Assembly: GCA_018268595.1 (NCBI GenBank)
Contig: JAFDWH010000026.1
Coordinates: 186,001 to 250,000 of the forward strand
DNA: 64,000 bases
DNA from: Actinomycetota bacterium
GTDB taxonomy: Bacteria; Actinomycetota; Thermoleophilia; Solirubrobacterales; Solirubrobacteraceae
Direction: 5' to 3'
Below, in pieces: positions 3,608-14,047 of the stretch. Position 1 is the first letter of the stretch, and each line of letters begins with the position of its first letter. The notes under the pieces are model-generated. The model searched no databases. It was given only the letters and a program-made list of their open reading frames with translations, and was not told where the DNA came from. The position numbers and the translations under genes are program-made.

Positions 3608-3883
3608 CTAGGTTGCGTCGTCGGCGACGCTCGCGAGCGTCGCCATGTCCGCGTCGCCGCCGCGTACCTCGCCGGCGCGCGCGAGGCCGTTCAGCCGCGC
3701 GATCTCGCGCTCGCCCTCGAGGCGCGCGGGATGGTCGGCTGGCAGGTCGCGGATCAGGCGCCGGATGCGCTCGCGCAGCTGCAGCGCGAAGTGCGGGGTG
3801 GAGGCGCCCATCAGCTGGCGCACGTCCTCGACCGTGACGGCGTGGGCGGGGCTGATGCGGTCGGGATGCTCGGCTTGGCTCAT
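3608..3883 (-). CDS. Small acidic/helical protein of unknown function
   Basis: A 91-residue protein with no family recognised. It is charged and helical (VTVEDVRQLMGASTPHFALQ, then a run of RERIRRLIRDLP), has no membrane segment or signal peptide and ends in an Ala/Asp-rich tail. Its ATG overlaps the TGA of the upstream lipoprotein gene as ATGA, so it should be co-translated with it and probably acts with it. Translation in this frame keeps the GC3-rich codon pattern of its neighbours, which supports a real gene. Confidence 0.65.
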   Translation of the reverse strand: MSQAEHPDRISPAHAVTVEDVRQLMGASTPHFALQLRERIRRLIRDLPADHPARLEGEREIARLNGLARAGEVRGGDADMATLASVADDAT

Positions 3884-5058
3884 CTGGCGGTCGTGTCGTT
3901 CTGGATCGGGGCGATCTCGAGCAGGCTGTCGATGCGCGACTGCACCGGGAGCGAGATCGCGGACTCGTCGCCGATCAGCCAGGCGCGATTGTAGACGCCG
4001 CGGGCCGGGTCGCGCGTGTAGCCCGGCTGGATGTCGAGCAGGTACTGGCCGACCGGCAGCGGCAGCGTTGCGGCGTCGTCCACCAGCAGCAGCGGCCCGT
4101 AGGTGCCGCTCGCCGACAGCGGGGCGGCCGCGGCCGCGTCGAGCGTGCGCCCGGCGTTGGCGAGCACGAGCCCGTGGCCGGGGTCGTCGACGCCCCAGCC
4201 GTAGAGCCCGTCGCGGTAGCGCGCGAAGGCGATCGCGGAGCGGACCGGGTCGGGCGCCGAGATGCGCGTCACCGGGCCGATCGCTCTCAGCGCGCGCTCG
4301 ACGCCGGTCCCCACGACGCTCGGGGGCGCGAGCAGGTAGACGCGCGGCCTGCGGTGCGCTTGCAGCGCGGCGAAGGTGGCGCCGGGGATCGTTGCTCTGT
4401 GCACGAACAGCAGCGGGTTGCCGGTCTTCGCGGCCCAGCCGGCGGCGGGCATCGCCCACGCCGGGTCGTCCGCGGAAGCGACGACGACGGCGCGGCTCGG
4501 CCGGCCGACCGCCGCGCTCTGGAGACGGTCGATCGCCGCCGCGAGCGCGATCGGGTCCGCGCCTGCGACCGTCGTCGAGCGGTAGCCGCCGGGCGCCGGC
4601 GCGTCGCCGATCCGCACGACCTGCGCGCCGCCGAGCTCGGACGCGCCGCTCGGCGCGAGCGTCGCGAGCGCGTCGGCGCTCGCGGCCGGCAGGTTCGAGC
4701 CGTCTGACAGCAGCAGCGGCGCGCGCAGCGGGTCGCTCATCAGGACCGAGGCCGCCAGCGCCGCCTGCCACGACCGCTGGTCGGCTAGCACGACGGCGCG
4801 CGGCCGGGCGGCGGTCCCGGCGTCGCCCGGGTAGACCGCCCGCGCGACCGCCGCGGCGTCCGCGATCGCGTCGGCGCCGCCGACGCGCGTCGTGTTCTTC
4901 GTCGCGAAGGCGGGGAAGCCGAGCTGCTGCGGTGCGTCGGACTCGTTCCCGGCGCGCCCGATCTGCGGGCTGTCGAGCCGCTGCGGCGTGCCGCCGCAGC
5001 CGGCCGCGAGCGCGGTCAGCGCCAGCAGGATCGCGCCGAGGGCGAGGCCGCGCCGCAT
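3880..5058 (-). CDS. Putative lipoprotein with cell-wall-binding-repeat-2-like domain
   Basis: 392 residues. A signal peptide with lipobox (LTALAAGC, cysteine at 21) predicts lipid attachment outside the membrane. The body resembles cell wall binding repeat 2 proteins: TTRVGGADAIADAAAVARAVY near 56-76, then repeated alternations of short beta strands and Ala-rich helices such as AVVLADQRSWQAALAASVL and APLLLSDGSNLPAAS. The gene lies 4 bases after the DUF3352 lipoprotein stop and overlaps the 91-residue gene, forming a three-gene envelope operon. The repeat assignment is by sequence pattern only. Confidence 0.6.
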   Translation of the reverse strand: MRRGLALGAILLALTALAAGCGGTPQRLDSPQIGRAGNESDAPQQLGFPAFATKNTTRVGGADAIADAAAVARAVYPGDAGTAARPRAVVLADQRSWQAALAASVLMSDPLRAPLLLSDGSNLPAASADALATLAPSGASELGGAQVVRIGDAPAPGGYRSTTVAGADPIALAAAIDRLQSAAVGRPSRAVVVASADDPAWAMPAAGWAAKTGNPLLFVHRATIPGATFAALQAHRRPRVYLLAPPSVVGTGVERALRAIGPVTRISAPDPVRSAIAFARYRDGLYGWGVDDPGHGLVLANAGRTLDAAAAAPLSASGTYGPLLLVDDAATLPLPVGQYLLDIQPGYTRDPARGVYNRAWLIGDESAISLPVQSRIDSLLEIAPIQNDTTAR

Positions 5059-5062
5059 TCGC

Positions 5063-6589
5063 TCAGCGCAGGGCCGCGACGATCCGCACGGACATGCGGT
5101 CGCCGTCGCGCTTCGTGCCGATCGCGAGCGAGCGGTACGCGTCCACGTACGGCAGCACGGACGAGAGGTCGGCGAGCTGGAGCTGGTCGATCGACCGCAG
5201 CAGCGCGGCCAGCGGCGGGACGACCAGCACGAACGACGGCGTGTAGCCCGGCCCGAGCGTGGCGATCGCCGCTCTGCCGGCGCTGCTCTCGTCGAGGCGC
5301 TGCTGCGGGGCCAGCAGGTCCTGCGCCGAGGAGGCCGCGTAGCCGGCCGCGAGCCTGTCGCCCTTGGCCAGCACGACGAGCGGCTGCGGCGCCTGCGGGA
5401 GCTGCAGCTCGAAGCCGCGCGCTCCGCCCGCGGCGACGGGGTGCGGCGCGACGTGCAGCCCGGTGGCCGCGAGCGCCTCGACGCGCGTCAGCAGCAGTTG
5501 TGCCGCGGCGGGGTTGGTGAGCTGGAGCAGCACGCCGCCGCCGATGTCGAGCAGCGACTCGCCGCGCACGAACATGCCGAGCCCGCCGAGCGGGTCGAGC
5601 AGGTCGCGGTCGAGGTCGAGCCCGAGTCGCGCGCGCACCTGCGCGGCGGCGCGTGCGTGCACGCCGGCGGCGTCGAGCGCTCCGCGCACGAGCGGCCCGA
5701 GCGGCGGGGTCGCGAGCGCGAGCCAGGCGTCGCCCGGGAGCTGGCTGACGCGCACCTCGGCGCGGGAGCCCTTTCGCGCGCCGGGATGCAGCGCGCCGCC
5801 GGCCTCGATCGCGATCTCGTCCCCGTTCGCGGTGAGGCTGCCGACCACGGGACCCGTGCCGAGCCGCGCGAGCGCTCTGCGCGAGGAGGCGCTCGCGGAC
5901 GTGGCGAGCGCCTGCGGGTCGGCGTAGCCGAACGCGAGCGCGTCGTCTGGGACGGCGTGGGTCGCGGCGGCGAAGCGCCGGTCGCCGGCGAGGCCGTTGC
6001 CGTGCGACGCGTCGATCGCGGCTCTCAGGCCGGCGAGCGTGCCGCCGACGTAGAAGTCGCCGACCGCCGCACCGTAGGTCGTCGGGTCGCTGTCGTCGCG
6101 GTCGTAGGTCACCCCGCGATAGCTGCCGGCGCGGTGCTGCCCTCTGCGCAGGCGCGGGAGCGCGGCGTCGAACGCGGAGCGGTCGCCGATCGCCATCAGC
6201 ACGGCCCACTGCGGACCATGCGCGCCGGCGGCCGGCGCCAGCAGGAACGCGCCGACGCGCGGGCCCAGCCACGGCTCGACGTCGCGCGAGAAGCGGATCC
6301 CGTCGGTCCTGTCCTTGTCGAACAGCCGGCGCAGCTCGGCGCCGGGGTCCTGGACGCGCAGGACTTTGCGCGCGGCCGCCACCGCGCCGTCCTTCGCCGC
6401 GCCGCTCGGTCGCACGGTCACCTGCCCATAGAGGGCCGCGCCCGCGGGCGCGAGCGTGGCGGGGTCCGGATCGGCGCGGCCCGACCTCGAGGCCGCGCCG
6501 CCGCAGCTCGTGAGGGCGAGCAGCACGGCCGCGAGCAGCGCGAGCAGCACGACGGCGCGCATGCCGTGGGGGACGCGGCGGGCGGGCAT
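5063..6589 (-). CDS. DUF3352-type lipoprotein
   Basis: About 508 residues with a twin-Arg n-region, hydrophobic stretch and lipobox LTSC (cysteine near residue 29), so an extracytoplasmic lipoprotein. The body fits the DUF3352 family, with VRPSGAAKDGAVAAARKVL and DVEPWLGPRVGAFLLAP near the start and long Ala/Leu-rich helices and strands after. The start at 6589 is preferred over an internal ATG at 6562 because a TAGCAT -10 box sits 8 bases upstream. Divergent from the riboswitch-controlled NlpC/P60 gene. Function unknown. Confidence 0.65.
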   Translation of the reverse strand: MPARRVPHGMRAVVLLALLAAVLLALTSCGGAASRSGRADPDPATLAPAGAALYGQVTVRPSGAAKDGAVAAARKVLRVQDPGAELRRLFDKDRTDGIRFSRDVEPWLGPRVGAFLLAPAAGAHGPQWAVLMAIGDRSAFDAALPRLRRGQHRAGSYRGVTYDRDDSDPTTYGAAVGDFYVGGTLAGLRAAIDASHGNGLAGDRRFAAATHAVPDDALAFGYADPQALATSASASSRRALARLGTGPVVGSLTANGDEIAIEAGGALHPGARKGSRAEVRVSQLPGDAWLALATPPLGPLVRGALDAAGVHARAAAQVRARLGLDLDRDLLDPLGGLGMFVRGESLLDIGGGVLLQLTNPAAAQLLLTRVEALAATGLHVAPHPVAAGGARGFELQLPQAPQPLVVLAKGDRLAAGYAASSAQDLLAPQQRLDESSAGRAAIATLGPGYTPSFVLVVPPLAALLRSIDQLQLADLSSVLPYVDAYRSLAIGTKRDGDRMSVRIVAALR

Positions 6590-6597
6590 CCGCCGAA

Positions 6598-6603
6598 ATG
6601 CTA
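6598..6603 (-). promoter_or_regulatory. -10 box for leaderless DUF3352 lipoprotein operon
   Basis: TAGCAT on the minus strand ends 8 bases before the ATG at 6589, which supports that start and a leaderless mRNA. Confidence 0.4.
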
Positions 6604-6641
6604 CGCACCGTGCGGGGTCTTCGGGCCGCCAGGGGGGCGGC

Positions 6642-6672
6642 TTGACATATCCGCCGACGCGTTGGCTAGTAT
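6642..6672 (+). promoter_or_regulatory. Sigma-A type promoter driving c-di-AMP riboswitch 1
   Basis: A consensus -35 TTGACA at 6642-6647 and a -10 TAGTAT at 6667-6672 are separated by 19 bases, slightly long. Transcription would begin near 6679, exactly where the riboswitch aptamer starts. Confidence 0.65.
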
Positions 6673-6678
6673 GCCGCG

Positions 6679-6806
6679 CCAACGCCGAATCCATGGCCCG
6701 AAGCCGTGGACCGGGGGACCCACAAGTCCCTGGGGCTAATCCCGCGGTGCATCCGCGAGAGGCGCCGGCTCTTTCCGCGCCAGCCCGTCAGCTAACCCCG
6801 GAGGCC
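6679..6806 (+). promoter_or_regulatory. ydaO/yuaA-type cyclic di-AMP riboswitch 1
   Basis: The leader of the NlpC/P60 gene carries the conserved blocks of the ydaO aptamer in order: GCCGAATCC, then GGGGGACCCAC at 6713-6723, GGGGCTAAT near 6732-6740 and AGCCCGTCAGCTAACCCC at 6782-6799. The last block is identical over 18 bases to the second riboswitch at 11.8 kb. In this class c-di-AMP binding usually turns the downstream gene off, and actinobacterial members commonly control cell-wall hydrolases, which fits here. Only about 6 bases separate the aptamer from the AGAGGAAG ribosome site and no separate terminator hairpin is obvious. Boundaries are approximate. Confidence 0.9.
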
Positions 6807-6823
6807 GACGAAAGAGGAAGCTG

Positions 6824-7444
6824 TTGCGCGCACGGACCCTGGTTGCGCTGGGTCTCACGACGTTCGGCCTTGCCTGCGCCCCTGCGATCTCCGCGGCGGC
6901 GACCGGCGGCGCCGGCATGCCGAGCGCCCCGGCGCCGGCGAAGACGTCCGGCACGACGCCCCCCGCGACGGCGAAGGACCAGGCCGGCGGTGCGGCGTAC
7001 GGCTCGATCCCGGCGATCCTCCACCCGACGGTCCCCGGCGACGTCGGCGTGATCAGAGACGGCATCGCGTACGCCCCCGCGAACGCGCCGCTGGCCGTGC
7101 AGCAGGCGATCTGGGCCGCCAACAAGCTGCGCCACAAGCCCTATATCTACGGCGGCGGTCACCAGAGCTTCCGCTCGCGCGGCTACGACTGCTCCGGCAC
7201 CGTCTCGTTCGCGCTGCACGCGGCGGGGCTGCTCCAGTCCCCGCTCGACTCCGGCAGCTTCATGCGCTGGGGCGATCGCGGCAGAGGCCAGTGGATCACC
7301 GTCTACACGAACCCCGGCCACGCCTGGGCGATCATCGCCGGCATGCGGCTCGACACGAGCGGCCCCGGCGAGTCCGGTCCGCGCTGGCGCACCGAGAGAC
7401 GCTCCGCGCGCGGCTTCCGCGTCCGCCATCCGGACGGCTTCTAG
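6824..7444 (+). CDS. Secreted NlpC/P60-like peptidoglycan hydrolase, c-di-AMP controlled
   Basis: 206 residues with an N-terminal signal sequence (about 1-26) and a low-complexity Ala/Pro/Thr linker. The C-terminal domain (about 90-200) carries YDCSGTVSFALHAAG (catalytic Cys123) and GHAWAIIAG (His166), as in NlpC/P60 endopeptidases that cut peptidoglycan stem peptides. The start is TTG at 6824 with AGAGGAAG 3 bases upstream; no better start exists between the riboswitch and the signal peptide. A hairpin at 7456-7474 ends the transcript. Riboswitch control implies lower expression when c-di-AMP is high. Confidence 0.8.
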   Translation: MRARTLVALGLTTFGLACAPAISAAATGGAGMPSAPAPAKTSGTTPPATAKDQAGGAAYGSIPAILHPTVPGDVGVIRDGIAYAPANAPLAVQQAIWAANKLRHKPYIYGGGHQSFRSRGYDCSGTVSFALHAAGLLQSPLDSGSFMRWGDRGRGQWITVYTNPGHAWAIIAGMRLDTSGPGESGPRWRTERRSARGFRVRHPDGF

Positions 7445-7455
7445 TCACGGGCCAC

Positions 7456-7474
7456 GCGCCGGGTCGCCCGGCGC
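7456..7474 (+). terminator. Hairpin terminator after NlpC/P60 gene
   Basis: GCGCCGGG and CCCGGCGC pair as a perfect 8-bp stem around TCG, 12 bases after the stop. No U tract follows, as is common in such GC-rich genomes. A TAGGCT -10 box at 7483-7488, just downstream, probably starts the pspA transcript. Confidence 0.5.
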
Positions 7475-7528
7475 GCGCTCGGTAGGCTTGACCGACCTGC
7501 CCCTCGAAGCTGCCCCAAGGAGGATCCG

Positions 7529-8305
7529 ATGGCCGGGTTGACCGGGCGTTTCTCCACCGTCGTGAAGGCGAAGATCTCGAAGCTGCTCGACCGCGCCGAG
7601 GACCCGTCCGAGACGCTGGAGTACAGCTACCAGAAGCAGATGGAGCTGCTGCAGAACGTCAAGAAGGGGCTCGCGGACGTCGTCACCGCGAAGAAGCGCC
7701 TTCAGCTCCAGTCGCAGAAGCTCGAGCAGCAGGTCGTCAAGCTCGACACGCAGGCGCGCCAGGCGCTCGCCGCCGGCAACGAGGACCTCGCCCGCACCGC
7801 GCTGGAGCGCAAGAACGCGGTCCAGAGCGAGCTGCAGGGCCTCGACGCGCAGGTCGCCGAGCTGGAGGGCCAGCAGCAGTCGATGACCGACAACCAGGCC
7901 AAGCTGCAGGCCAAGATCGAGGCCTTCCGCAGCAAGAAGGAGGTCATCAAGGCGCAGTACTCGGCGGCCGAGGCGCAGGTGCGCATCTCCGAGGCCGCCA
8001 CGGGCGTCGGCGAGGAGATGGCCGACGTCGGCCTCGCGATGCAGCGCGCGCTCGACAAGACCGAGAACATGCGCGCCCGCGCGCAGGCGGTCGACGAGCT
8101 CGAGCAGGCCGGCGCGTTCGAGGACCTGACGCAGCTCGGCGGCGGCGAGGACGACATCGACCGCCAGCTCAGACAGCTCAGCAGCGGCACGCAGGTCGAC
8201 GCCGAGCTGGAGAAGATGAAGGCCGAGCTGGGCGCCGGCGGCGGCAGCGCCGGCCAGCTCGGCGGCGGCGAGCAGCCCGCCTCCGGCGAAGGGCAGTCGG
8301 CATGA
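7529..8305 (+). CDS. pspA: PspA/IM30 (ESCRT-III-like) membrane stress protein
   Basis: 258 residues, almost entirely coiled coil (about 15-225), as in PspA/Vipp1 proteins that polymerise on stressed membranes and preserve the proton gradient. The N-terminus MAGLTGRFSTVVKAKISKLL and the following DRAEDPSETLEYSYQKQ match the helix 0/1 region of the family. The tail (about 226-258) is Gly/Ser-rich. A strong AAGGAGG precedes the ATG. It overlaps pspAA as ATGA, and pspAB and htpX lie in the next 2.5 kb, the actinobacterial partner set for PspA. Confidence 0.95.
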   Translation: MAGLTGRFSTVVKAKISKLLDRAEDPSETLEYSYQKQMELLQNVKKGLADVVTAKKRLQLQSQKLEQQVVKLDTQARQALAAGNEDLARTALERKNAVQSELQGLDAQVAELEGQQQSMTDNQAKLQAKIEAFRSKKEVIKAQYSAAEAQVRISEAATGVGEEMADVGLAMQRALDKTENMRARAQAVDELEQAGAFEDLTQLGGGEDDIDRQLRQLSSGTQVDAELEKMKAELGAGGGSAGQLGGGEQPASGEGQSA

Positions 8306-8580
8306 TCGTCCGCATCGCGACGGAGGGGCAGTACCGCCTCGCCGACGACGTGCTGGAGCGCGTCAACGCGCTCGACAACGCGGTCGTCGCCGCCGTCGAG
8401 GCGCAGGACGAGGGCCGCTTCGCCGAGCTGTTCGGGCAGCTGATCGCGCTGATCCGCGCCGAGGGCACGCCGCTGTCGGAGGACGAGCTGCAGGGCTCGG
8501 ACGTGATCGTGCCGCCGCCGGACACCTCGCTGGAGGAGGCGGGCAGCGACTTCAGCGGCGACGGGCTGATCCCGGACTGA
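8302..8580 (+). CDS. pspAA: PspA-associated protein PspAA
   Basis: 92 residues, matching the small alpha/beta PspAA family found next to pspA in Actinobacteria (MIVRIATEGQYRLADDVLER, then LDNAVVAAVEAQDEGRF). The ATG overlaps the pspA stop (ATGA). Predicted cytoplasmic partner of PspA. The C-terminal 15 residues are acidic and probably unstructured. A stem-loop 20 bases downstream probably ends the two-gene transcript. Confidence 0.85.
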   Translation: MIVRIATEGQYRLADDVLERVNALDNAVVAAVEAQDEGRFAELFGQLIALIRAEGTPLSEDELQGSDVIVPPPDTSLEEAGSDFSGDGLIPD

Positions 8581-8599
8581 CCGTCGCCCGGCGACACGG

Positions 8600-8632
8600 C
8601 GAAGCGCCCCGGCGAGAGGCCGGAGCGCTTCG
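8600..8632. terminator. Bidirectional terminator hairpin between convergent genes
   Basis: CGAAGCGC (8600-8607) pairs with GCGCTTCG (8625-8632), and an inner CCGGC/GCCGG extends the stem. It lies between pspAA (plus) and the membrane protein gene (minus), so it can serve both. Confidence 0.6.
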
Positions 8633-8655
8633 CGCCGTCCGCGCGGAGCGGACGA

Positions 8656-9294
8656 TCAGCCGGCGGCAGGGTGCGCGGGCGCGCTCCCGGGGGCGGCCGC
8701 GGCGGCGCGCCGCACGCGGATCGCGTCGCCCGTCGCGGCCAGCAGGCCTGTCGTCAGCAGCAGGAAGCCGATCCCCGTCAGCAGCAGGGCGGCGCCCATC
8801 ACGGCCGCGAAGAGGCCGACCGACTGGGCGAAGTACGAGGTGTTGAGCGCGGTGCTGAGCGCGGTCTCGGTCACCCACACGTTGCGGGCCGCGTTGTCGA
8901 CCGGCTGGCCGCCTCTCGTGAGCGCCTGTGTGGCGTCGTTCGTGCCGGCGCCGTCGGCGGTCGCGTAGCGCGGCATCTGGGCGTAGGTCTTGCCGCCCGT
9001 CGCCTCGAGCGCGTGGATCCGCATGTACTGCGCGAAGCAGCGCGCCTCGTTGCCGGTGTCGATCGACTGGCCGGCGACCGAGCAGCTCGGGAGCGAGACG
9101 TTCGCGAGCCCGGCCGCCTTCGCCTCTCTGGCGATCGCCGCCGGCGTCATGTCGGGTGTCCCGACGATCGCCTCCTGCTTGAGGTTGTTCGCGACGTCGG
9201 CGCGGCCGGTGAGCCCGACGACGATCGCGCCGATGCCGAGGGCGATCAAGACGATGCTGGCGGCGACGCCGCCGTAGCGGAAGATGGTTCGCAC
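8656..9294 (-). CDS. Two-TM membrane protein of unknown function in the Psp block
   Basis: 212 residues, no family recognised. One membrane segment lies at about 8-29 (ASIVLIALGIGAIVVGL). An extracytoplasmic domain of about 130 residues follows, holding two cysteines (SLPSCSVAG and EARCFAQYM) that could form a disulfide. A second hydrophobic hairpin-like segment near 160-188 precedes a basic cytoplasmic tail. GTG at 9294 is chosen because GGGGAGGAG lies 6 bases upstream; in-frame codons further up do not look like coding sequence. Its position between pspAA and pspAB suggests an envelope-stress role (inference). Confidence 0.65.
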   Translation of the reverse strand: MRTIFRYGGVAASIVLIALGIGAIVVGLTGRADVANNLKQEAIVGTPDMTPAAIAREAKAAGLANVSLPSCSVAGQSIDTGNEARCFAQYMRIHALEATGGKTYAQMPRYATADGAGTNDATQALTRGGQPVDNAARNVWVTETALSTALNTSYFAQSVGLFAAVMGAALLLTGIGFLLLTTGLLAATGDAIRVRRAAAAAPGSAPAHPAAG

Positions 9295-9428
9295 GGTGTG
9301 CTCCTCCCCGAAAGGACCAGAAAACAGGATGCGACCAGTCTGCGCGAGGCGGCAGGCCGCGCCCACCGTGCAGCGCCGCGGAGTCGGACGGTGATGTCCC
9401 GCCGCAACGTCTGCGGGCTTCTACGCGC

Positions 9429-10001
9429 CTAGACCGGGATGCCCCAGAGCGGGAACCAGCGCTCCAGCTCGGGCTCGAGCGGCAGCTCGGCGCCGAGCTG
9501 CGCCTTCAGCCGCAGCTCGCGCTCGGTGTCGCGCTCATGGTCGCCGGTGCCCGGCACGAACGGGTAGAACGCGCCGCGCTTGTAGTTGTAGATGAAGTAG
9601 AGCGGGCGACGGCTCGCGTCCTGGAACGCGAACACTGCGCACAGGATGCGGTCGCCGTAGCCGCCGGCCTCGAGCGCGCCGCTGACGGCGTTGATGCCGA
9701 CGACGAGGTCGTCGAAGTCCGGGTCGCGCAGCAGCATCCAGCGGTAGCCGTAGTCGTCGTCGCGCGTCTCCACGGTCGTGCCGCTGTCGCTCGACGTGCC
9801 CTCGACGACCTCGACCATGTCCTTCGCGATCTGCTCGAAGTCGGCGGTCGCGAGCGCTTGGAAGACGATCCCCGCGACGCCGCGCGTCGCGATCTCCAGC
9901 TCCGTCTGGAGCGTCACGTACGCCGTGCTGATCGCGAACAGGCGGTCGGGCGCCGGTCTGGCGAGCTTGCGCTTGCCGGCGAGGATGTCGAACAGGCCCA
10001 T
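9429..10001 (-). CDS. pspAB: PspA-associated protein PspAB
   Basis: 190 residues, matching the actinobacterial PspAB family: MGLFDILAGKRKLARPAPDRLFA at the start, then ISTAYVTLQTELEI and a YNYKRGAFYPFVP segment near 145-158. No membrane segment. It lies directly downstream of htpX on the same strand (22-base gap) and probably shares its transcript. Known from family surveys to accompany PspA, PspAA and HtpX; its biochemical role is unresolved. Confidence 0.85.
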   Translation of the reverse strand: MGLFDILAGKRKLARPAPDRLFAISTAYVTLQTELEIATRGVAGIVFQALATADFEQIAKDMVEVVEGTSSDSGTTVETRDDDYGYRWMLLRDPDFDDLVVGINAVSGALEAGGYGDRILCAVFAFQDASRRPLYFIYNYKRGAFYPFVPGTGDHERDTERELRLKAQLGAELPLEPELERWFPLWGIPV

Positions 10002-10023
10002 CGGGTGACGGTCCGCGCGGCCG

Positions 10024-10920
10024 CTACCCGACGCCTTGGAGCTGCGACTCGAGCCGGCTCAGCGCCGCGAGCCGCTGCTCGAGCGGCGGATGCGTCGAGA
10101 ACAGGTTCATCAGCGACTGCTTCGCGTGCGGCGGGAAGATGTAGAACGCCGCCATGCCCTCGGCGCTGCGCAGGTCCTTCTGCGGGATCCGCTCCATCGT
10201 GCCGCTGATCTTCATCAGCGCCGCGGCGAGCGCGCTCGGCCGGCCGGTGATGACCGCCGAGCCGCGGTCCGCGGCGAACTCGCGGTAGCGCGAGAGCGCC
10301 TGCAGCAGCAGGAACGAGACGACGTAGACGACCAGCGAGACGAGGATCACGACCGCCACCGACGGGCTGTCGTCGTCGTTGCTGCTCATCCCGCCGCCGC
10401 CGAAGAAGAAGCCGAACTGGACGATGTAGGCGGCGACCGTCGCGAAGAAGCTCGCGATCGTCATCACCATCACGTCGCGGTTCTGCACGTGCGTCAGCTC
10501 GTGCGCCATCACGCCCTCCAGCTCGGCGGGCGACAGCAGCTCCATGATCCCGGTCGTCGCGCAGACGGTCGCCTTTCTCGGCGAGCGGCCGATCGCGAAC
10601 GCGTTCGGCATGCGCGTGTTGGCGACCGCGACGCGCGGCTTCGGCAGGTTCGCCTGCACGCACAGGCGCTCGACCATCGCGTGCAGCTGGGGCGCCTCCT
10701 GCGGGGTCACCTCGCGCGCGCCCATCGCGTGCAGCGCGAGCTTGTCGGAGGCGAACAGCTGCAGCAGGAACATGCCGCCGACGACGAACAGCAGGAACGG
10801 CACCTTGGCGGCGATCACCACGCCGACGAGCACGGCGTAGACGAGGCCGAGCAGGAACATGGTGAGCGTCATCCGGAGCTGGAGTCCGGTGTCGCGACCA
10901 AACGACGTGGGGCGGGCCAT
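10024..10920 (-). CDS. htpX: Zinc metalloprotease HtpX homologue
   Basis: 298 residues. An M48 membrane protease that degrades damaged membrane proteins. Two N-terminal membrane segments (about 17-38 and 40-57) precede the HELTH zinc motif (140-144). A third zinc ligand is Glu214 in EFAADRG, after two further membrane helices (about 152-175 and 187-208). The gene starts at ATG 10920 with AGGAGG 9 bases upstream; longer in-frame readings have no support. A perfect 10-bp inverted repeat abuts the ribosome site. Partner of pspAB downstream. Confidence 0.93.
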   Translation of the reverse strand: MARPTSFGRDTGLQLRMTLTMFLLGLVYAVLVGVVIAAKVPFLLFVVGGMFLLQLFASDKLALHAMGAREVTPQEAPQLHAMVERLCVQANLPKPRVAVANTRMPNAFAIGRSPRKATVCATTGIMELLSPAELEGVMAHELTHVQNRDVMVMTIASFFATVAAYIVQFGFFFGGGGMSSNDDDSPSVAVVILVSLVVYVVSFLLLQALSRYREFAADRGSAVITGRPSALAAALMKISGTMERIPQKDLRSAEGMAAFYIFPPHAKQSLMNLFSTHPPLEQRLAALSRLESQLQGVG

Positions 10921-10934
10921 GGTGCGGATCCTCC

Positions 10935-10957
10935 TGGGATCTGGGTTCCAGATCCCA
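10935..10957. promoter_or_regulatory. Inverted repeat upstream of htpX
   Basis: TGGGATCTGG and CCAGATCCCA form perfect 10-bp arms around GTT. The repeat touches the htpX Shine-Dalgarno complement at 10930-10935. It could be an operator for a stress regulator or an mRNA hairpin limiting htpX translation. Confidence 0.5.
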
Positions 10958-10982
10958 TCATGGCAGACGAGATGAGCGCTTC

Positions 10983-11705
10983 TTAAGGCTCGCCCCAGGC
11001 GAGCCGGCTGCCGGCGCCGGAGGCGACGCCGAAGACGTCGTCGAGCAGCGGCTCGGGCTCCGCGACGCCGAGCTCGCCGCGCAGGTGCCGCTCGACCTCC
11101 GCGCGCGAGGAGCCGCCGACCGCCATCTCGATCGCGACGAGCCGCGCGGCGCTCGGCGCGGGGATCTCGCCGGCGTCGCCGTCGCCGTTCGTGGGCGGCG
11201 CGGGGGCGGGCTCGGCCTCGATGCGCGACCAGCTCGGCGCGGGCTCGCGCGGGGCGACCGGCTCCGGCGGCGCGGCGGGCGCGGGCGGAGCGGGGGCGAC
11301 CGGGGCGACGCGCGCGGGCGGAGCGGCGGGCGCGGGCGCCGCCGCCTGCGGCGGCCACGGGGTGCGCGGCAGGCGCGTGTCGGCGTGGACGTCCTCCGCC
11401 TGCAGCTCGCGCGTCAGGGCGGCGACGGCGTCCGTCAGCTCGTCGGCGAGCCGGCGGGCGGCGCGGCTGAGCGTCTCGATGCGCGCGGCGCGCGCGGCTG
11501 TCTCGGCGTCGACGTGCAGGCGGGCGGCGGCGAGGTAGCGGCGCGCCTCCTCCTCGGCGCTGCGGCGATGCTCCGCGATCGCCTGCTCGGCGACGCGCGC
11601 CTCGCGCTCGGCCGCGTCGACGATCGCTGCGACGCGCGCGGCGAGGTCCGCGCCCAGCCGGCCTCCTGCCGGTCCGGGCGTGCTGTCGGGGGGAGGGGCA
11701 GCCAT
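10983..11705 (-). CDS. Coiled-coil, Pro/Ala-rich protein of unknown function
   Basis: 240 residues. The N-terminal half (about 18-115) is a long Ala/Arg/Glu coiled coil (ADLAARVAAIVDAAEREARV). A Pro/Ala-rich linker (about 125-190) and a small C-terminal segment with HLRGELGV follow. The layout recalls DivIVA-like or cell-division coiled-coil proteins of Actinobacteria, but no domain is firmly recognised. ATG 11705 is the most plausible start, though no Shine-Dalgarno sequence is visible. It lies between htpX and the riboswitch-controlled M23 peptidase. Confidence 0.6.
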   Translation of the reverse strand: MAAPPPDSTPGPAGGRLGADLAARVAAIVDAAEREARVAEQAIAEHRRSAEEEARRYLAAARLHVDAETAARAARIETLSRAARRLADELTDAVAALTRELQAEDVHADTRLPRTPWPPQAAAPAPAAPPARVAPVAPAPPAPAAPPEPVAPREPAPSWSRIEAEPAPAPPTNGDGDAGEIPAPSAARLVAIEMAVGGSSRAEVERHLRGELGVAEPEPLLDDVFGVASGAGSRLAWGEP

Positions 11706-11793
11706 GCCGATCGCGCGGGAGTATGACAGCGGGGCGGGGAAAAGCCCAGCGTCTTGCCGGTTTTCCACGGCATGCGGCAGCCGGGCGTGATAG

Positions 11794-11924
11794 GCTGCCG
11801 CGCGCCGAGTCTCTCACGTGCGCGTGGGAGAGCGGGGGACCCACAGAGTCCTCCTCAGGGGCGAATCGCGGTCTGATGACCGCGTAGCGCATCGCGCGAG
11901 CCCGTCAGCTAACCCCGCAGGCAC
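11794..11924 (+). promoter_or_regulatory. ydaO/yuaA-type cyclic di-AMP riboswitch 2
   Basis: The same ordered blocks as riboswitch 1 are present: GCCGAGTCTC, GGGGGACCCAC at 11834-11844, GGGGCGAAT at 11858-11866 and AGCCCGTCAGCTAACCCC at 11899-11916. TGCC near 11796 can pair with GGCA near 11920 to close P1. It precedes the M23 peptidase gene by about 75 bases. c-di-AMP should repress read-through. A TAGGCT at 11791-11796 could be the -10 box, but no good -35 was found. Confidence 0.9.
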
Positions 11925-11956
11925 CGCAGATGGGCTCCATAACAGTGAACCTGAGG

Positions 11957-11986
11957 TTGACCCTTTGGAGGGCGCGAGCCTAGACT
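11957..11986 (+). promoter_or_regulatory. Internal promoter downstream of riboswitch 2
   Basis: TTGACC at 11957-11962 and TAGACT at 11981-11986 have an 18-base spacer, close to the sigma-A consensus. The start point would fall 6-8 bases before or at the ATG at 11999, giving a nearly leaderless mRNA that lacks the riboswitch. An overlapping hairpin, GGCGCGAG/CTCGCGCGCC at 11971-11994, could instead be the riboswitch expression platform. Confidence 0.5.
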
Positions 11987-11998
11987 CGCGCGCCGCGC

Positions 11999-13204
11999 AT
12001 GCGCCTTCGCAGCATCCTGCTCCTCACCCTGCTCGCCCCGATCGCCCTCTGGGCGGTGCTTCCGCTCGTCTCGAGCGCGAGCCCCGAGGCGACCGTCAGC
12101 TCGCTGCAGAGCCGCATCGACCACAAGCAGCAGAAGCTCGACCAGGCCCACGGGCGCGCGCGCGTGCTGACGACCGACATCTCGGGCCTGACGCAGAGAA
12201 TCGACCGGCTGCAAAGCACGATCACGACGCTCCAGCGGCGCGAGAGCGCGATCCAGGCGGACCTCGACGTCAAGCAGGCGCAGCTCGGCCGCACGCAGGA
12301 CGAGCTGCGGCGGGTGCGCGCACGGCTCGTGCAACTGCGTGCCCGGCTCGAGCGCGCGAGAGCGACCCTCGCCGACCGGCTCGTCGAGCTCTACAAGTCC
12401 GACCAGCCGGACATCGTCAGCGTCGTCCTCGACGCGAACGGCTTCGCCGACCTGCTCGAGAACGGCGCGTACCTGCAGCGGATCGGCCAGCAGGACAGGG
12501 CGATCATCACCGCGGTGCGGGACGCCAAGGCCGAGATGGCGGCCGCCGCCAGACGCCTCGGCACGCTCGAGCAGCGCCAGCAGCGCATCACCACCGAGAT
12601 CGCCGACCGGCGCAACGCCGTCGCGCACGTGCGCGTCGAGGTCCAGGGCAAGCGCGACGCGATCGACCGCGTGCGCCACAGCAAGCAGGCGGTGCTGAGC
12701 TCCGTCCGCGACCACGCCGACAAGCTCGACGAGGACATCAAGGCGCTGCAGTCGCAGCAGGCGAAGATCGAGGCCCGCATCCGCGCCGCGCAGGGCGGCA
12801 GCTCGATCCCGGCCGGCCCGATCAGAGGCGGCGGGCGCTTCATCTGGCCCGTCAATGGCCCGATCACCTCGCCCTTCTGCGAGCGGCGCGCGTGGGAGGC
12901 GTGCCACCCGGGCATCGACATCGGCGTGCCGTCCGGGACGCCGATCCGCGCCGCCGGCAGCGGCAACGTCGTGATCGCGGGCTGGGTCAGCGGCTACGGC
13001 AACTACACGTGCATCGACCACGGCGGCGGGATCTCCACCTGCTACGGCCACCAGTCGTCGATCCAGGTCAGCGTCGGCCAGCACGTGACGCAGGGCCAGG
13101 TGATCGGCCTGTCCGGCTGCACCGGCCTCTGCTTCGGCCCCCACCTCCACTTCGAGGTGCGCATCAACGGGGCCGTCACGAACCCGGTGAACTACCTCGG
13201 CTGA
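11999..13204 (+). CDS. Secreted M23 peptidase with coiled-coil domain (EnvC/NlpD-like)
   Basis: 401 residues. A signal peptide (about 1-27) is followed by a long coiled coil (about 30-265) and a C-terminal LytM/M23 domain (about 285-400). The zinc ligands H303 and D307 (HPGID) and the HLH at 382-384 are intact, so it should be an active peptidoglycan endopeptidase. The M23 domain carries three closely spaced cysteine pairs, suggesting disulfides. The start is ATG 11999; the only GGAGG lies about 27 bases upstream, so leaderless translation from the internal promoter is likely. c-di-AMP riboswitch 2 precedes it. Confidence 0.85.
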   Translation: MRLRSILLLTLLAPIALWAVLPLVSSASPEATVSSLQSRIDHKQQKLDQAHGRARVLTTDISGLTQRIDRLQSTITTLQRRESAIQADLDVKQAQLGRTQDELRRVRARLVQLRARLERARATLADRLVELYKSDQPDIVSVVLDANGFADLLENGAYLQRIGQQDRAIITAVRDAKAEMAAAARRLGTLEQRQQRITTEIADRRNAVAHVRVEVQGKRDAIDRVRHSKQAVLSSVRDHADKLDEDIKALQSQQAKIEARIRAAQGGSSIPAGPIRGGGRFIWPVNGPITSPFCERRAWEACHPGIDIGVPSGTPIRAAGSGNVVIAGWVSGYGNYTCIDHGGGISTCYGHQSSIQVSVGQHVTQGQVIGLSGCTGLCFGPHLHFEVRINGAVTNPVNYLG

Positions 13205-13227
13205 GCGGGGCCCGCCCGCCGGCGCGC

Positions 13228-13233
13228 TAGCCT
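13228..13233 (+). promoter_or_regulatory. -10 box for leaderless lgt
   Basis: TAGCCT ends 7 bases before the GTG start of lgt, with no Shine-Dalgarno sequence between. Confidence 0.45.
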
Positions 13234-13240
13234 CCCGGAC

Positions 13241-14047
13241 GTGCTGAAGCAGATCGATCTCCTGGGCGTCCACCTGCAGACGTTCGGGATCTTCTTCGCG
13301 CTGAACTTCCTCTGCTGGGCGGCGGTCGTCGCCAAGCGGCTGCGCGAGCTCGGGAAGCCGGTCGACTGGGCCTACGAGATCCTGTTCGCGGCGCTGATCG
13401 GCGGGCTCGTCGGGGCGCGCGCCTACTACATCGTGCAGAACTACGACCAGGTCAAGGGCGACCTCGTCGGCAACGTCTTCAGCGGCGCCGGGCTGATCTG
13501 GTACGGGGGCCTGCTGGGCGGCGTCGTCGCGGTGCTGGCGTGGGCGCGGTGGCGCGGCTTCCTCAGACTCGCGCTGCTCGACATGGCGGCGCCGGGCCTC
13601 GCGCTCGGCTACGCGATCGGCCGCATCGGCTGCCAGGTGTCCGGCGACGGCGACTACGGCAAGGCCTCGCACCTGCCGTGGGCGATGGGCTACCCGCACG
13701 GCGCGGTGCCGACGGCGCCGGGGGTGACGGTCCAGCCGACGCCGATCTACGAGACGCTCTCGATGGGCCTGTTCGCGCTCGTGCTGTGGCGCCTGCGCGA
13801 CGCCTTCCGCCCCGGCGCGCTGTTCGGGATCTATCTCGTCGGGGCCGGGGTCGAGCGCTTCCTCGTCGAGTTCGCGCGCCGCAACGAGCACGTGCTGGGG
13901 ATCCTCACGGCGGCGCAGATCGAGAGCATCACGCTGATCGTCGCCGGCGCCGTCTGGCTGCTCGTGCTGCTGCGCAGACACGGGACGCTGCGCGCCGAGC
14001 TTGCGCCCGCGCCGCGCGGCGGCCGCTCGCGCCCCGCGACGGCGTAG
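13241..14047 (+). CDS. lgt: Prolipoprotein diacylglyceryl transferase
   Basis: 268 residues. It transfers diacylglycerol from phosphatidylglycerol to the lipobox cysteine of prolipoproteins, the first step of lipoprotein maturation. About seven membrane segments are visible. Signature elements include GARAYYIVQNY (about 64-74), GAGLIWYGGLLGG near 84-96 and the conserved GRIGCQVSGDGDYG near 127-140. The start is GTG with a -10 box 7 bases upstream. It would modify the several lipoproteins encoded in this window. Confidence 0.95.
   Translation: MLKQIDLLGVHLQTFGIFFALNFLCWAAVVAKRLRELGKPVDWAYEILFAALIGGLVGARAYYIVQNYDQVKGDLVGNVFSGAGLIWYGGLLGGVVAVLAWARWRGFLRLALLDMAAPGLALGYAIGRIGCQVSGDGDYGKASHLPWAMGYPHGAVPTAPGVTVQPTPIYETLSMGLFALVLWRLRDAFRPGALFGIYLVGAGVERFLVEFARRNEHVLGILTAAQIESITLIVAGAVWLLVLLRRHGTLRAELAPAPRGGRSRPATA

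What the first reader, a model, noticed from the sequence alone, without database searches (positions are those of the whole stretch)
3608..14047. PspA stress module bracketed by two c-di-AMP riboswitch-controlled cell-wall hydrolases
Seen: pspA-pspAA, an unknown two-TM protein, pspAB and htpX occupy 7.5-10.9 kb. On either side lie an NlpC/P60-like hydrolase and an M23 peptidase, each behind a ydaO-type riboswitch sharing an 18-base identical block. Lipoprotein genes and lgt flank the block. Known: c-di-AMP reports turgor and wall state; PspA protects membranes. Inference: the block couples membrane repair to wall cutting through c-di-AMP.
Basis: partly seen in the sequence, partly recalled or inferred. 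Interest (0 to 1): 0.7.

Follow-up and report, generated by a model that had tools for sequence, protein, structure and literature searches.

The report
Riboswitch-controlled wall hydrolases beside psp genes
A soil actinobacterium carries a membrane-repair gene set (psp) with two c-di-AMP RNA switches nearby: the one before an NlpC/P60 wall-cutting enzyme looks like a clean translational off-switch conserved across its order, but the evidence says the psp genes have their own promoter and are neighbours rather than targets of the switches.

Summary
In detail: two RF00379 c-di-AMP riboswitches (6685-6821 and 11793-11938, +) lie before an NlpC/P60-fold protein and an M23 peptidase, on either side of pspA-pspAA / pspAB-htpX. 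The double bracket occurs in three Conexibacter-group genomes and one more distant MAG. The riboswitch-nlpC-pspA half is widespread in Solirubrobacterales.

The coupling inference is not supported. (i) The riboswitch follows nlpC, not psp: 27 of 28 loci with nlpC have it; loci lacking nlpC keep pspA without it (one exception, where another hydrolase took nlpC's place). (ii) pspA has a conserved -10-like TA(C/G)GCT about 40 nt upstream, with or without a riboswitch. (iii) The nlpC switch looks translational: the start codon (TTG/GTG) lies 1-7 nt past the aptamer, and the Shine-Dalgarno GAAAGAG is the 3' strand of the known aptamer pseudoknot with CUCUUUC, so it should act on nlpC alone, as reported for C. 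glutamicum. (iv) The M23 switch lacks that pairing, is absent from most relatives, and is followed by a conserved promoter-like TTGACC-N18-TAGACT. (v) lysA and hom are as conserved beside psp as nlpC.

Verdict: new members of known kinds in an undescribed, order-wide neighbourhood.

The parts
6642..6672 (+). promoter-like TTGACA-N19-TAGTAT just upstream of the first riboswitch
   Evidence: read from sequence; similar TTGACG-N18-TAGGAT at the same place in the congener L142; inferred, no transcript data
6685..6821 (+). c-di-AMP (ydaO/RF00379) riboswitch 1; its pseudoknot joins loop CUCUUUC to tail GAAAGAG, which is also the nlpC Shine-Dalgarno
   Evidence: Rfam 60.0 bits; order-wide model 114.9 bits; pairing and covariation
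6824..7444 (+). nlpC: secreted NlpC/P60-fold putative peptidoglycan hydrolase, TTG start 2 nt after the aptamer
   Evidence: invariant DCSG Cys and following His; AF2 plus Foldseek to RipA/RipB; PDB profile hits RipB/LytE; no Pfam hit
7483..7488 (+). -10-like TAGGCT of the proposed independent pspA promoter, inside the 84-nt nlpC-pspA gap
   Evidence: 37-41 of 46 order loci carry TA(C/G)(G/A)(C/A)T or TANNCT upstream of pspA, shuffle mean 1.8-3.7
7529..8305 (+). pspA (PspA/IM30 family)
   Evidence: PF04012 7.7e-27; only copy in the genome
8302..8580 (+). pspAA
   Evidence: PF22743 8.3e-32
8656..9297 (-). two-TM protein of unknown function, not conserved at this site
   Evidence: no Pfam/NCBIfam match; no tblastn match in 72 relative loci or L142
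9429..10001 (-). pspAB
   Evidence: PF22742 5.3e-71
10024..10920 (-). htpX, M48 membrane metalloprotease
   Evidence: PF01435 2e-35; NCBIfam HtpX equivalog 431.9 bits over cut-off 341
11793..11938 (+). c-di-AMP riboswitch 2, without the CUCUUUC loop and without a Shine-Dalgarno in its tail
   Evidence: Rfam 62.8 bits; no pairing found
11939..11986 (+). conserved promoter-like block ATAACAGTGAACCTGAGGTTGACC-N18-TAGACT between riboswitch 2 and the M23 start
   Evidence: same TTGACC-N18-TAGACT/TAAACT in L009, L142, L143; once only in the genome
11999..13204 (+). M23 peptidase with N-terminal coiled coil
   Evidence: PF01551 9.1e-33; weak PcsB coiled-coil match
13241..14047 (+). lgt, 36 nt after M23
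   Evidence: PF01790 2.1e-42

Best explanation
The block is an inherited envelope-gene neighbourhood of Solirubrobacterales in which the gene for a secreted NlpC/P60 hydrolase sits behind a c-di-AMP off-switch next to the PspA-PspAA / PspAB-HtpX set. Mechanism for nlpC: when c-di-AMP binds, the aptamer's own pseudoknot (CUCUUUC with GAAAGAG) closes over the ribosome-binding site and the weak TTG start 2 nt beyond the aptamer is not used; when c-di-AMP is low the site is free and hydrolase is made. Shown here: the RNA match, complementarity with covariation, start position, conservation. Inferred: direction of switching, from the C. glutamicum nlpC switch. pspA is most likely transcribed from its own promoter in the nlpC-pspA gap and is not a riboswitch target. 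The M23 switch is a lineage-restricted addition with a different, unresolved output and a promoter-like sequence downstream of it.
For: Aptamer immediately before nlpC in 27 loci besides the window, all starts TTG/GTG at 1-7 nt. 51 of 69 switches have a secreted-protein ORF starting 0-11 nt after the aptamer, against 5 and 3 in control positions. 7-bp pairing with compensatory changes (TTCTTTC/GAAAGAA, CTCTTTT/AAAAGAG, CTCTCTT/AAGAGAG, CCCTTTC/GAAAGGG, CCTTTTC/GAAAAGG); 0 of 5000 permutations reach the observed pairing. The crystallised ydaO aptamer sequence printed in PMC5393176 has the equivalent CUCCUUCG/CGAAGGAG, and that paper reports a pseudoknot. The C. glutamicum nlpC switch lowers protein but not mRNA, and not a second cistron (PMC9960051). 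Riboswitch tracks nlpC (Fisher p 1e-9). Own pspA -10-like element. In G005 and G013 riboswitch-nlpC lies 15-21 kb from pspAB. M23 downstream promoter-like block.
Against: No expression or ligand-binding data. The nlpC-pspA gap is short (44-257 nt in most loci, 84 nt here), so read-through from the riboswitch promoter into pspA is possible. The Streptomyces rpfA switch is reported to act on transcription (PMC10117811). TANNCT-like motifs are not proof of promoters. L046 has nlpC with an ATG start and no riboswitch. Loci are related, so counts are not independent.
Confidence: 0.72

Rival explanations
1. One reading: the block is a functional c-di-AMP module in which both hydrolases and psp are co-regulated so that membrane repair and wall cutting are coupled.
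For: Conserved adjacency of riboswitch-nlpC and pspA over many genera; double bracket in three Conexibacter-group genomes and L022; PspA-NlpC/P60 fusion proteins are reported in PMC11237479.
Against: pspA keeps its own promoter-like element and is present without riboswitch or nlpC in about 15 loci; riboswitch lost when nlpC is lost; M23 switch uncommon; lysA and hom in 25 and 23 of 25 loci are at least as conserved as nlpC (16 of 25).
Confidence: 0.1
2. Transcriptional read-through: the riboswitch attenuates one nlpC-pspA-pspAA transcript, so c-di-AMP also lowers part of PspA.
For: Same strand, 84-nt gap; Streptomyces rpfA switch acts on transcription (PMC10117811).
Against: SD inside the aptamer and start right after it leave no room for a separate terminator platform; the related C. 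glutamicum nlpC switch leaves mRNA and the second cistron unchanged; own pspA -10-like element; pspA inverted or far from nlpC in L022, L039, L062.
Confidence: 0.18
3. The M23 riboswitch is a working control of an M23-lgt operon in the same off sense.
For: Aptamer core intact, 62.8 bits; M23-lgt gap 36 nt; extended -10-like TGATAGGCT just upstream of the aptamer; in L058 and L061 the M23 start directly follows the aptamer.
Against: In the window, L009, L142 and L143 a conserved TTGACC-N18-TAGACT/TAAACT lies between aptamer and start; the anti-SD loop is missing; Conexibacter L008 has M23 with a similar promoter-like sequence and no riboswitch.
Confidence: 0.3

Closest known systems
Corynebacterium glutamicum nlpC c-di-AMP riboswitch (PMC9960051)
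   Same: ydaO-type aptamer before an NlpC/P60 gene, reported translational off-switch; the authors propose a pseudoknot between CTCC and the RBS GGAG
   Different: There nlpC heads an unrelated seven-gene operon; here it sits beside psp, and comparative data show the SD strand as part of the aptamer pseudoknot in most of the order's switches
Streptomyces rpfA and other riboswitch-controlled cell-wall hydrolases (reviewed in PMC10117811)
   Same: c-di-AMP riboswitches on a set of 6-7 wall hydrolases per genome; this genome has 7 candidate switches (one below cut-off), 6 before wall enzymes
   Different: rpfA output reported as premature transcription termination
PspA-PspAA and PspAB-metallopeptidase contexts (PMC11237479)
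   Same: Same gene set, with a membrane-associated metallopeptidase (HtpX here)
   Different: No riboswitch is mentioned in that paper; NlpC/P60 there is a rare fusion partner, not a neighbour behind a switch
RipA/RipB of Mycobacterium tuberculosis
   Same: Best fold and profile matches of the NlpC protein
   Different: Divergent sequence, no Pfam hit

Membership tests
RF00379 c-di-AMP riboswitch | covariance-model score above the curated cut-off | tested here: met
   60.0 and 62.8 bits against 38
RF00379 c-di-AMP riboswitch | loop-tail pseudoknot of the crystallised aptamer, switch 1 (6685-6821) | tested here: met
   CUCUUUC/GAAAGAG, seven pairs, covariation in relatives
RF00379 c-di-AMP riboswitch | loop-tail pseudoknot of the crystallised aptamer, switch 2 (11793-11938) | tested here: not met
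   loop shortened, no run of 5 or more pairs with the tail; the curated score is met all the same, so it is filed as a family member by sequence and secondary structure only
RF00379 c-di-AMP riboswitch | binds c-di-AMP | not testable with these tools
   needs in-line probing or ITC; a DAC-domain gene is present at G000:C18:157236
NlpC/P60 peptidase | Cys in DCSG and following His | tested here: met
   C123 and H166 invariant in 27 homologues
NlpC/P60 peptidase | papain-like NlpC/P60 fold | tested here: met
   AF2 pLDDT above 90 over the domain; Foldseek top hits RipA, Cg1735, RipB, E 3e-5 to 3e-4
NlpC/P60 peptidase | Pfam family score over cut-off | tested here: not met
   no Pfam hit; homologues match RipB/RipC models weakly; so I call it a divergent NlpC/P60-fold protein
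PspA-PspAA / PspAB-metallopeptidase system | PspA_IM30, PspAA, PspAB domains and an adjacent membrane metalloprotease | tested here: met
c-di-AMP-controlled psp operon | psp on a transcript governed by the riboswitch | tested here: inconclusive
   own promoter-like element argues against; no transcript data

The most novel reading that the evidence does not exclude
PspA in Solirubrobacterales is partly under c-di-AMP control through read-through from the nlpC riboswitch promoter, so that one second messenger sets wall cutting and membrane protection together; I found no c-di-AMP link to a Psp system in the held papers.
Probability: 0.12. Interest if true: 0.65.

Novelty: new member of a known kind. 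Interest (0 to 1): 0.36.

Why it matters
It extends c-di-AMP control of wall hydrolases to an actinobacterial order for which a search of the held papers found no c-di-AMP work. It gives comparative support for a simple translational mechanism, in which the ribosome-binding site is one strand of the aptamer's own pseudoknot, that had only been proposed for C. glutamicum. It also shows how conserved synteny can suggest a regulatory module where the switch in fact follows a single gene.

Tried and rejected
Literature searches for a c-di-AMP/PspA or PspAB/HtpX link gave nothing relevant. Nelson 2013 is not held. RNA MFE folding of the leader without pseudoknots was uninformative. The pattern GTGAACCTGAGGTTGAC was tested as a regulon motif: one site only in the genome. 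The two-TM protein was considered as a psp partner and dropped, having no homologue in relatives. Adjacency as evidence for function was rejected because lysA and hom are as conserved there.

Full report
What is there. The window is from a 3.57-Mb draft genome closest to Conexibacter (Solirubrobacterales), judged by the named records nearest to its pspAB. Two c-di-AMP riboswitches are confirmed by Rfam. The genome holds seven RF00379 matches, six over the cut-off. Reading the ORFs downstream, they precede: this nlpC, this M23, a second NlpC-like protein with two peptidoglycan-binding domains, another M23 peptidase, a peptidoglycan-binding/transglycosylase-like protein, an RlpA-like (DPBB) protein (the below-cut-off match), and one small membrane protein. 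Cell-wall genes are the known targets of this riboswitch in Actinobacteria (PMC9960051, PMC10117811). A single DAC-domain gene is present, as is a single pspA.

Conservation. A scan with pspAB fetched 72 loci. The order xseA - small protein - CWB2 lipoprotein - nlpC - pspA - pspAA - pspAB - htpX - M23 - lgt - lysA - hom recurs over Solirubrobacterales with gains and losses. A covariance model built from 23 riboswitches found 36 sites in the window and these loci; Rfam gave the same sites in eight loci re-tested. In 27 loci besides the window the switch directly precedes nlpC. In 20 whole genomes, 12 have a riboswitch within about 7 kb of pspAB, 10 of them of the nlpC kind. The double bracket is in the window, C. 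arvalis (G042 = L009), G090 (L142) and MAG L022. The switch before M23 appears in only a handful of loci (window, L009, L142, L143, L022, L058, L061, weakly L040), although M23 itself is common there; L008, a Conexibacter, has M23 without it.

Whose switch is it? Where nlpC is missing from the spot, the switch is missing and pspA stays (checked in detail). The one exception, L011, has a different putative hydrolase behind the switch. One nlpC (L046) has no switch and starts with ATG. A Fisher test on nlpC versus switch gives p about 1e-9, with the caution that the genomes are related. In G005 and G013 nlpC and its switch lie 21 and 15 kb from pspAB. In L022 pspA is inverted relative to nlpC. 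So the switch belongs to nlpC.

Does pspA have its own promoter? A -10-like hexamer TA(C/G)(G/A)(C/A)T is present 20-90 nt upstream of pspA in 37 of 46 loci (shuffle mean 1.8, maximum 6), in 26 of 28 with a riboswitch and 11 of 18 without one. In the window it is TAGGCT, about 40 nt before pspA. This is sequence evidence only; no conserved -35 was seen.

How the nlpC switch probably works. In all 27 relatives the start codon is TTG (14) or GTG (13), 1-7 nt after the modelled aptamer. Over 69 riboswitches of the order, 51 have a secreted-type ORF starting 0-11 nt after the aptamer, against 5 and 3 at control positions. The tail GAAAGAG(G), the evident Shine-Dalgarno, is complementary to a loop CUCUUUC inside the aptamer; 47 of 68 sequences form all seven pairs under a rule that does not look at complementarity, and several show compensatory changes. 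Rfam's consensus carries both halves although its structure line does not pair them. The crystallised ydaO RNA whose sequence is printed in PMC5393176 has CUCCUUCG and CGAAGGAG at the same places, and that paper reports a pseudoknot. So the pseudoknot is a known part of the aptamer; using its 3' strand as the ribosome-binding site is the translational arrangement that PMC9960051 proposed for C. glutamicum nlpC after finding unchanged mRNA and an unaffected second cistron. That c-di-AMP turns translation off here is inferred by analogy.

The M23 switch. It lacks the loop and has no SD in its tail. Between it and the M23 ATG the window, L009 and L142 share ATAAC...GAACCTGAGGTTGACC-N18-TAGACT, and L143 has TTGACC-N18-TAAACT. 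This looks like a promoter giving a very short leader, which would bypass the switch; a weaker -10-like element precedes the aptamer. What the switch does there is open.

The NlpC protein. No Pfam hit, but profile search against PDB sequences finds RipB and LytE, AF2 gives a confident domain and Foldseek returns RipA, Cg1735 and RipB. Cys123 and His166 are invariant in 27 homologues. Homologues at E below 1e-20 were found in 33 of 149 genomes sampled from the class, all in this order.

Judgement. The sighting is accurate and the neighbourhood is conserved over many genera. The proposed coupling of psp to c-di-AMP is not what the evidence favours. Neighbouring genes with no obvious link to psp (lysA 25, hom 23 of 25 loci) are at least as conserved as nlpC (16 of 25), so adjacency carries little weight. 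An indirect or read-through effect on pspA remains possible and is directly testable.

Noticed in passing
L001:1645-1896 (G000:C29); also behind the switches of L114, L117, L115, L110, L112, L116, L119, L137, L139, L135: Eleven c-di-AMP riboswitches of the order, several of them among the best-scoring, precede what looks like an undescribed protein family: variable, probably disordered N-terminus with an RRT(V/I)xIxG motif and (where read through) a single C-terminal TM segment (RPDRxAxWAxxMGxxLIL); no Pfam hit for the L001 member. It is the one clear non-hydrolase target in this genome.
   Followed up: partly
window 11939-11962: Conserved dyad AACCTGAGGTT overlapping the -35 of the M23 proximal promoter-like sequence, near-identical in L009 and L142 and unique in the genome; possible operator.
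   Followed up: partly
L011:13554-13700: At the nlpC position a different putative hydrolase (peptidoglycan-binding plus M23-like) sits behind a c-di-AMP riboswitch whose tail lacks the SD pairing: non-orthologous replacement with a switch retained or re-acquired.
   Followed up: partly
L046:4035-4541 (tblastn range): nlpC beside pspA with an ATG start and no detectable riboswitch; a natural switch-less variant.
   Followed up: no
window 8656-9297: Two-TM protein between pspAA and pspAB with no homologue in relatives; the pspAA-pspAB gap varies widely in length across the order, as a site of insertions.
   Followed up: partly
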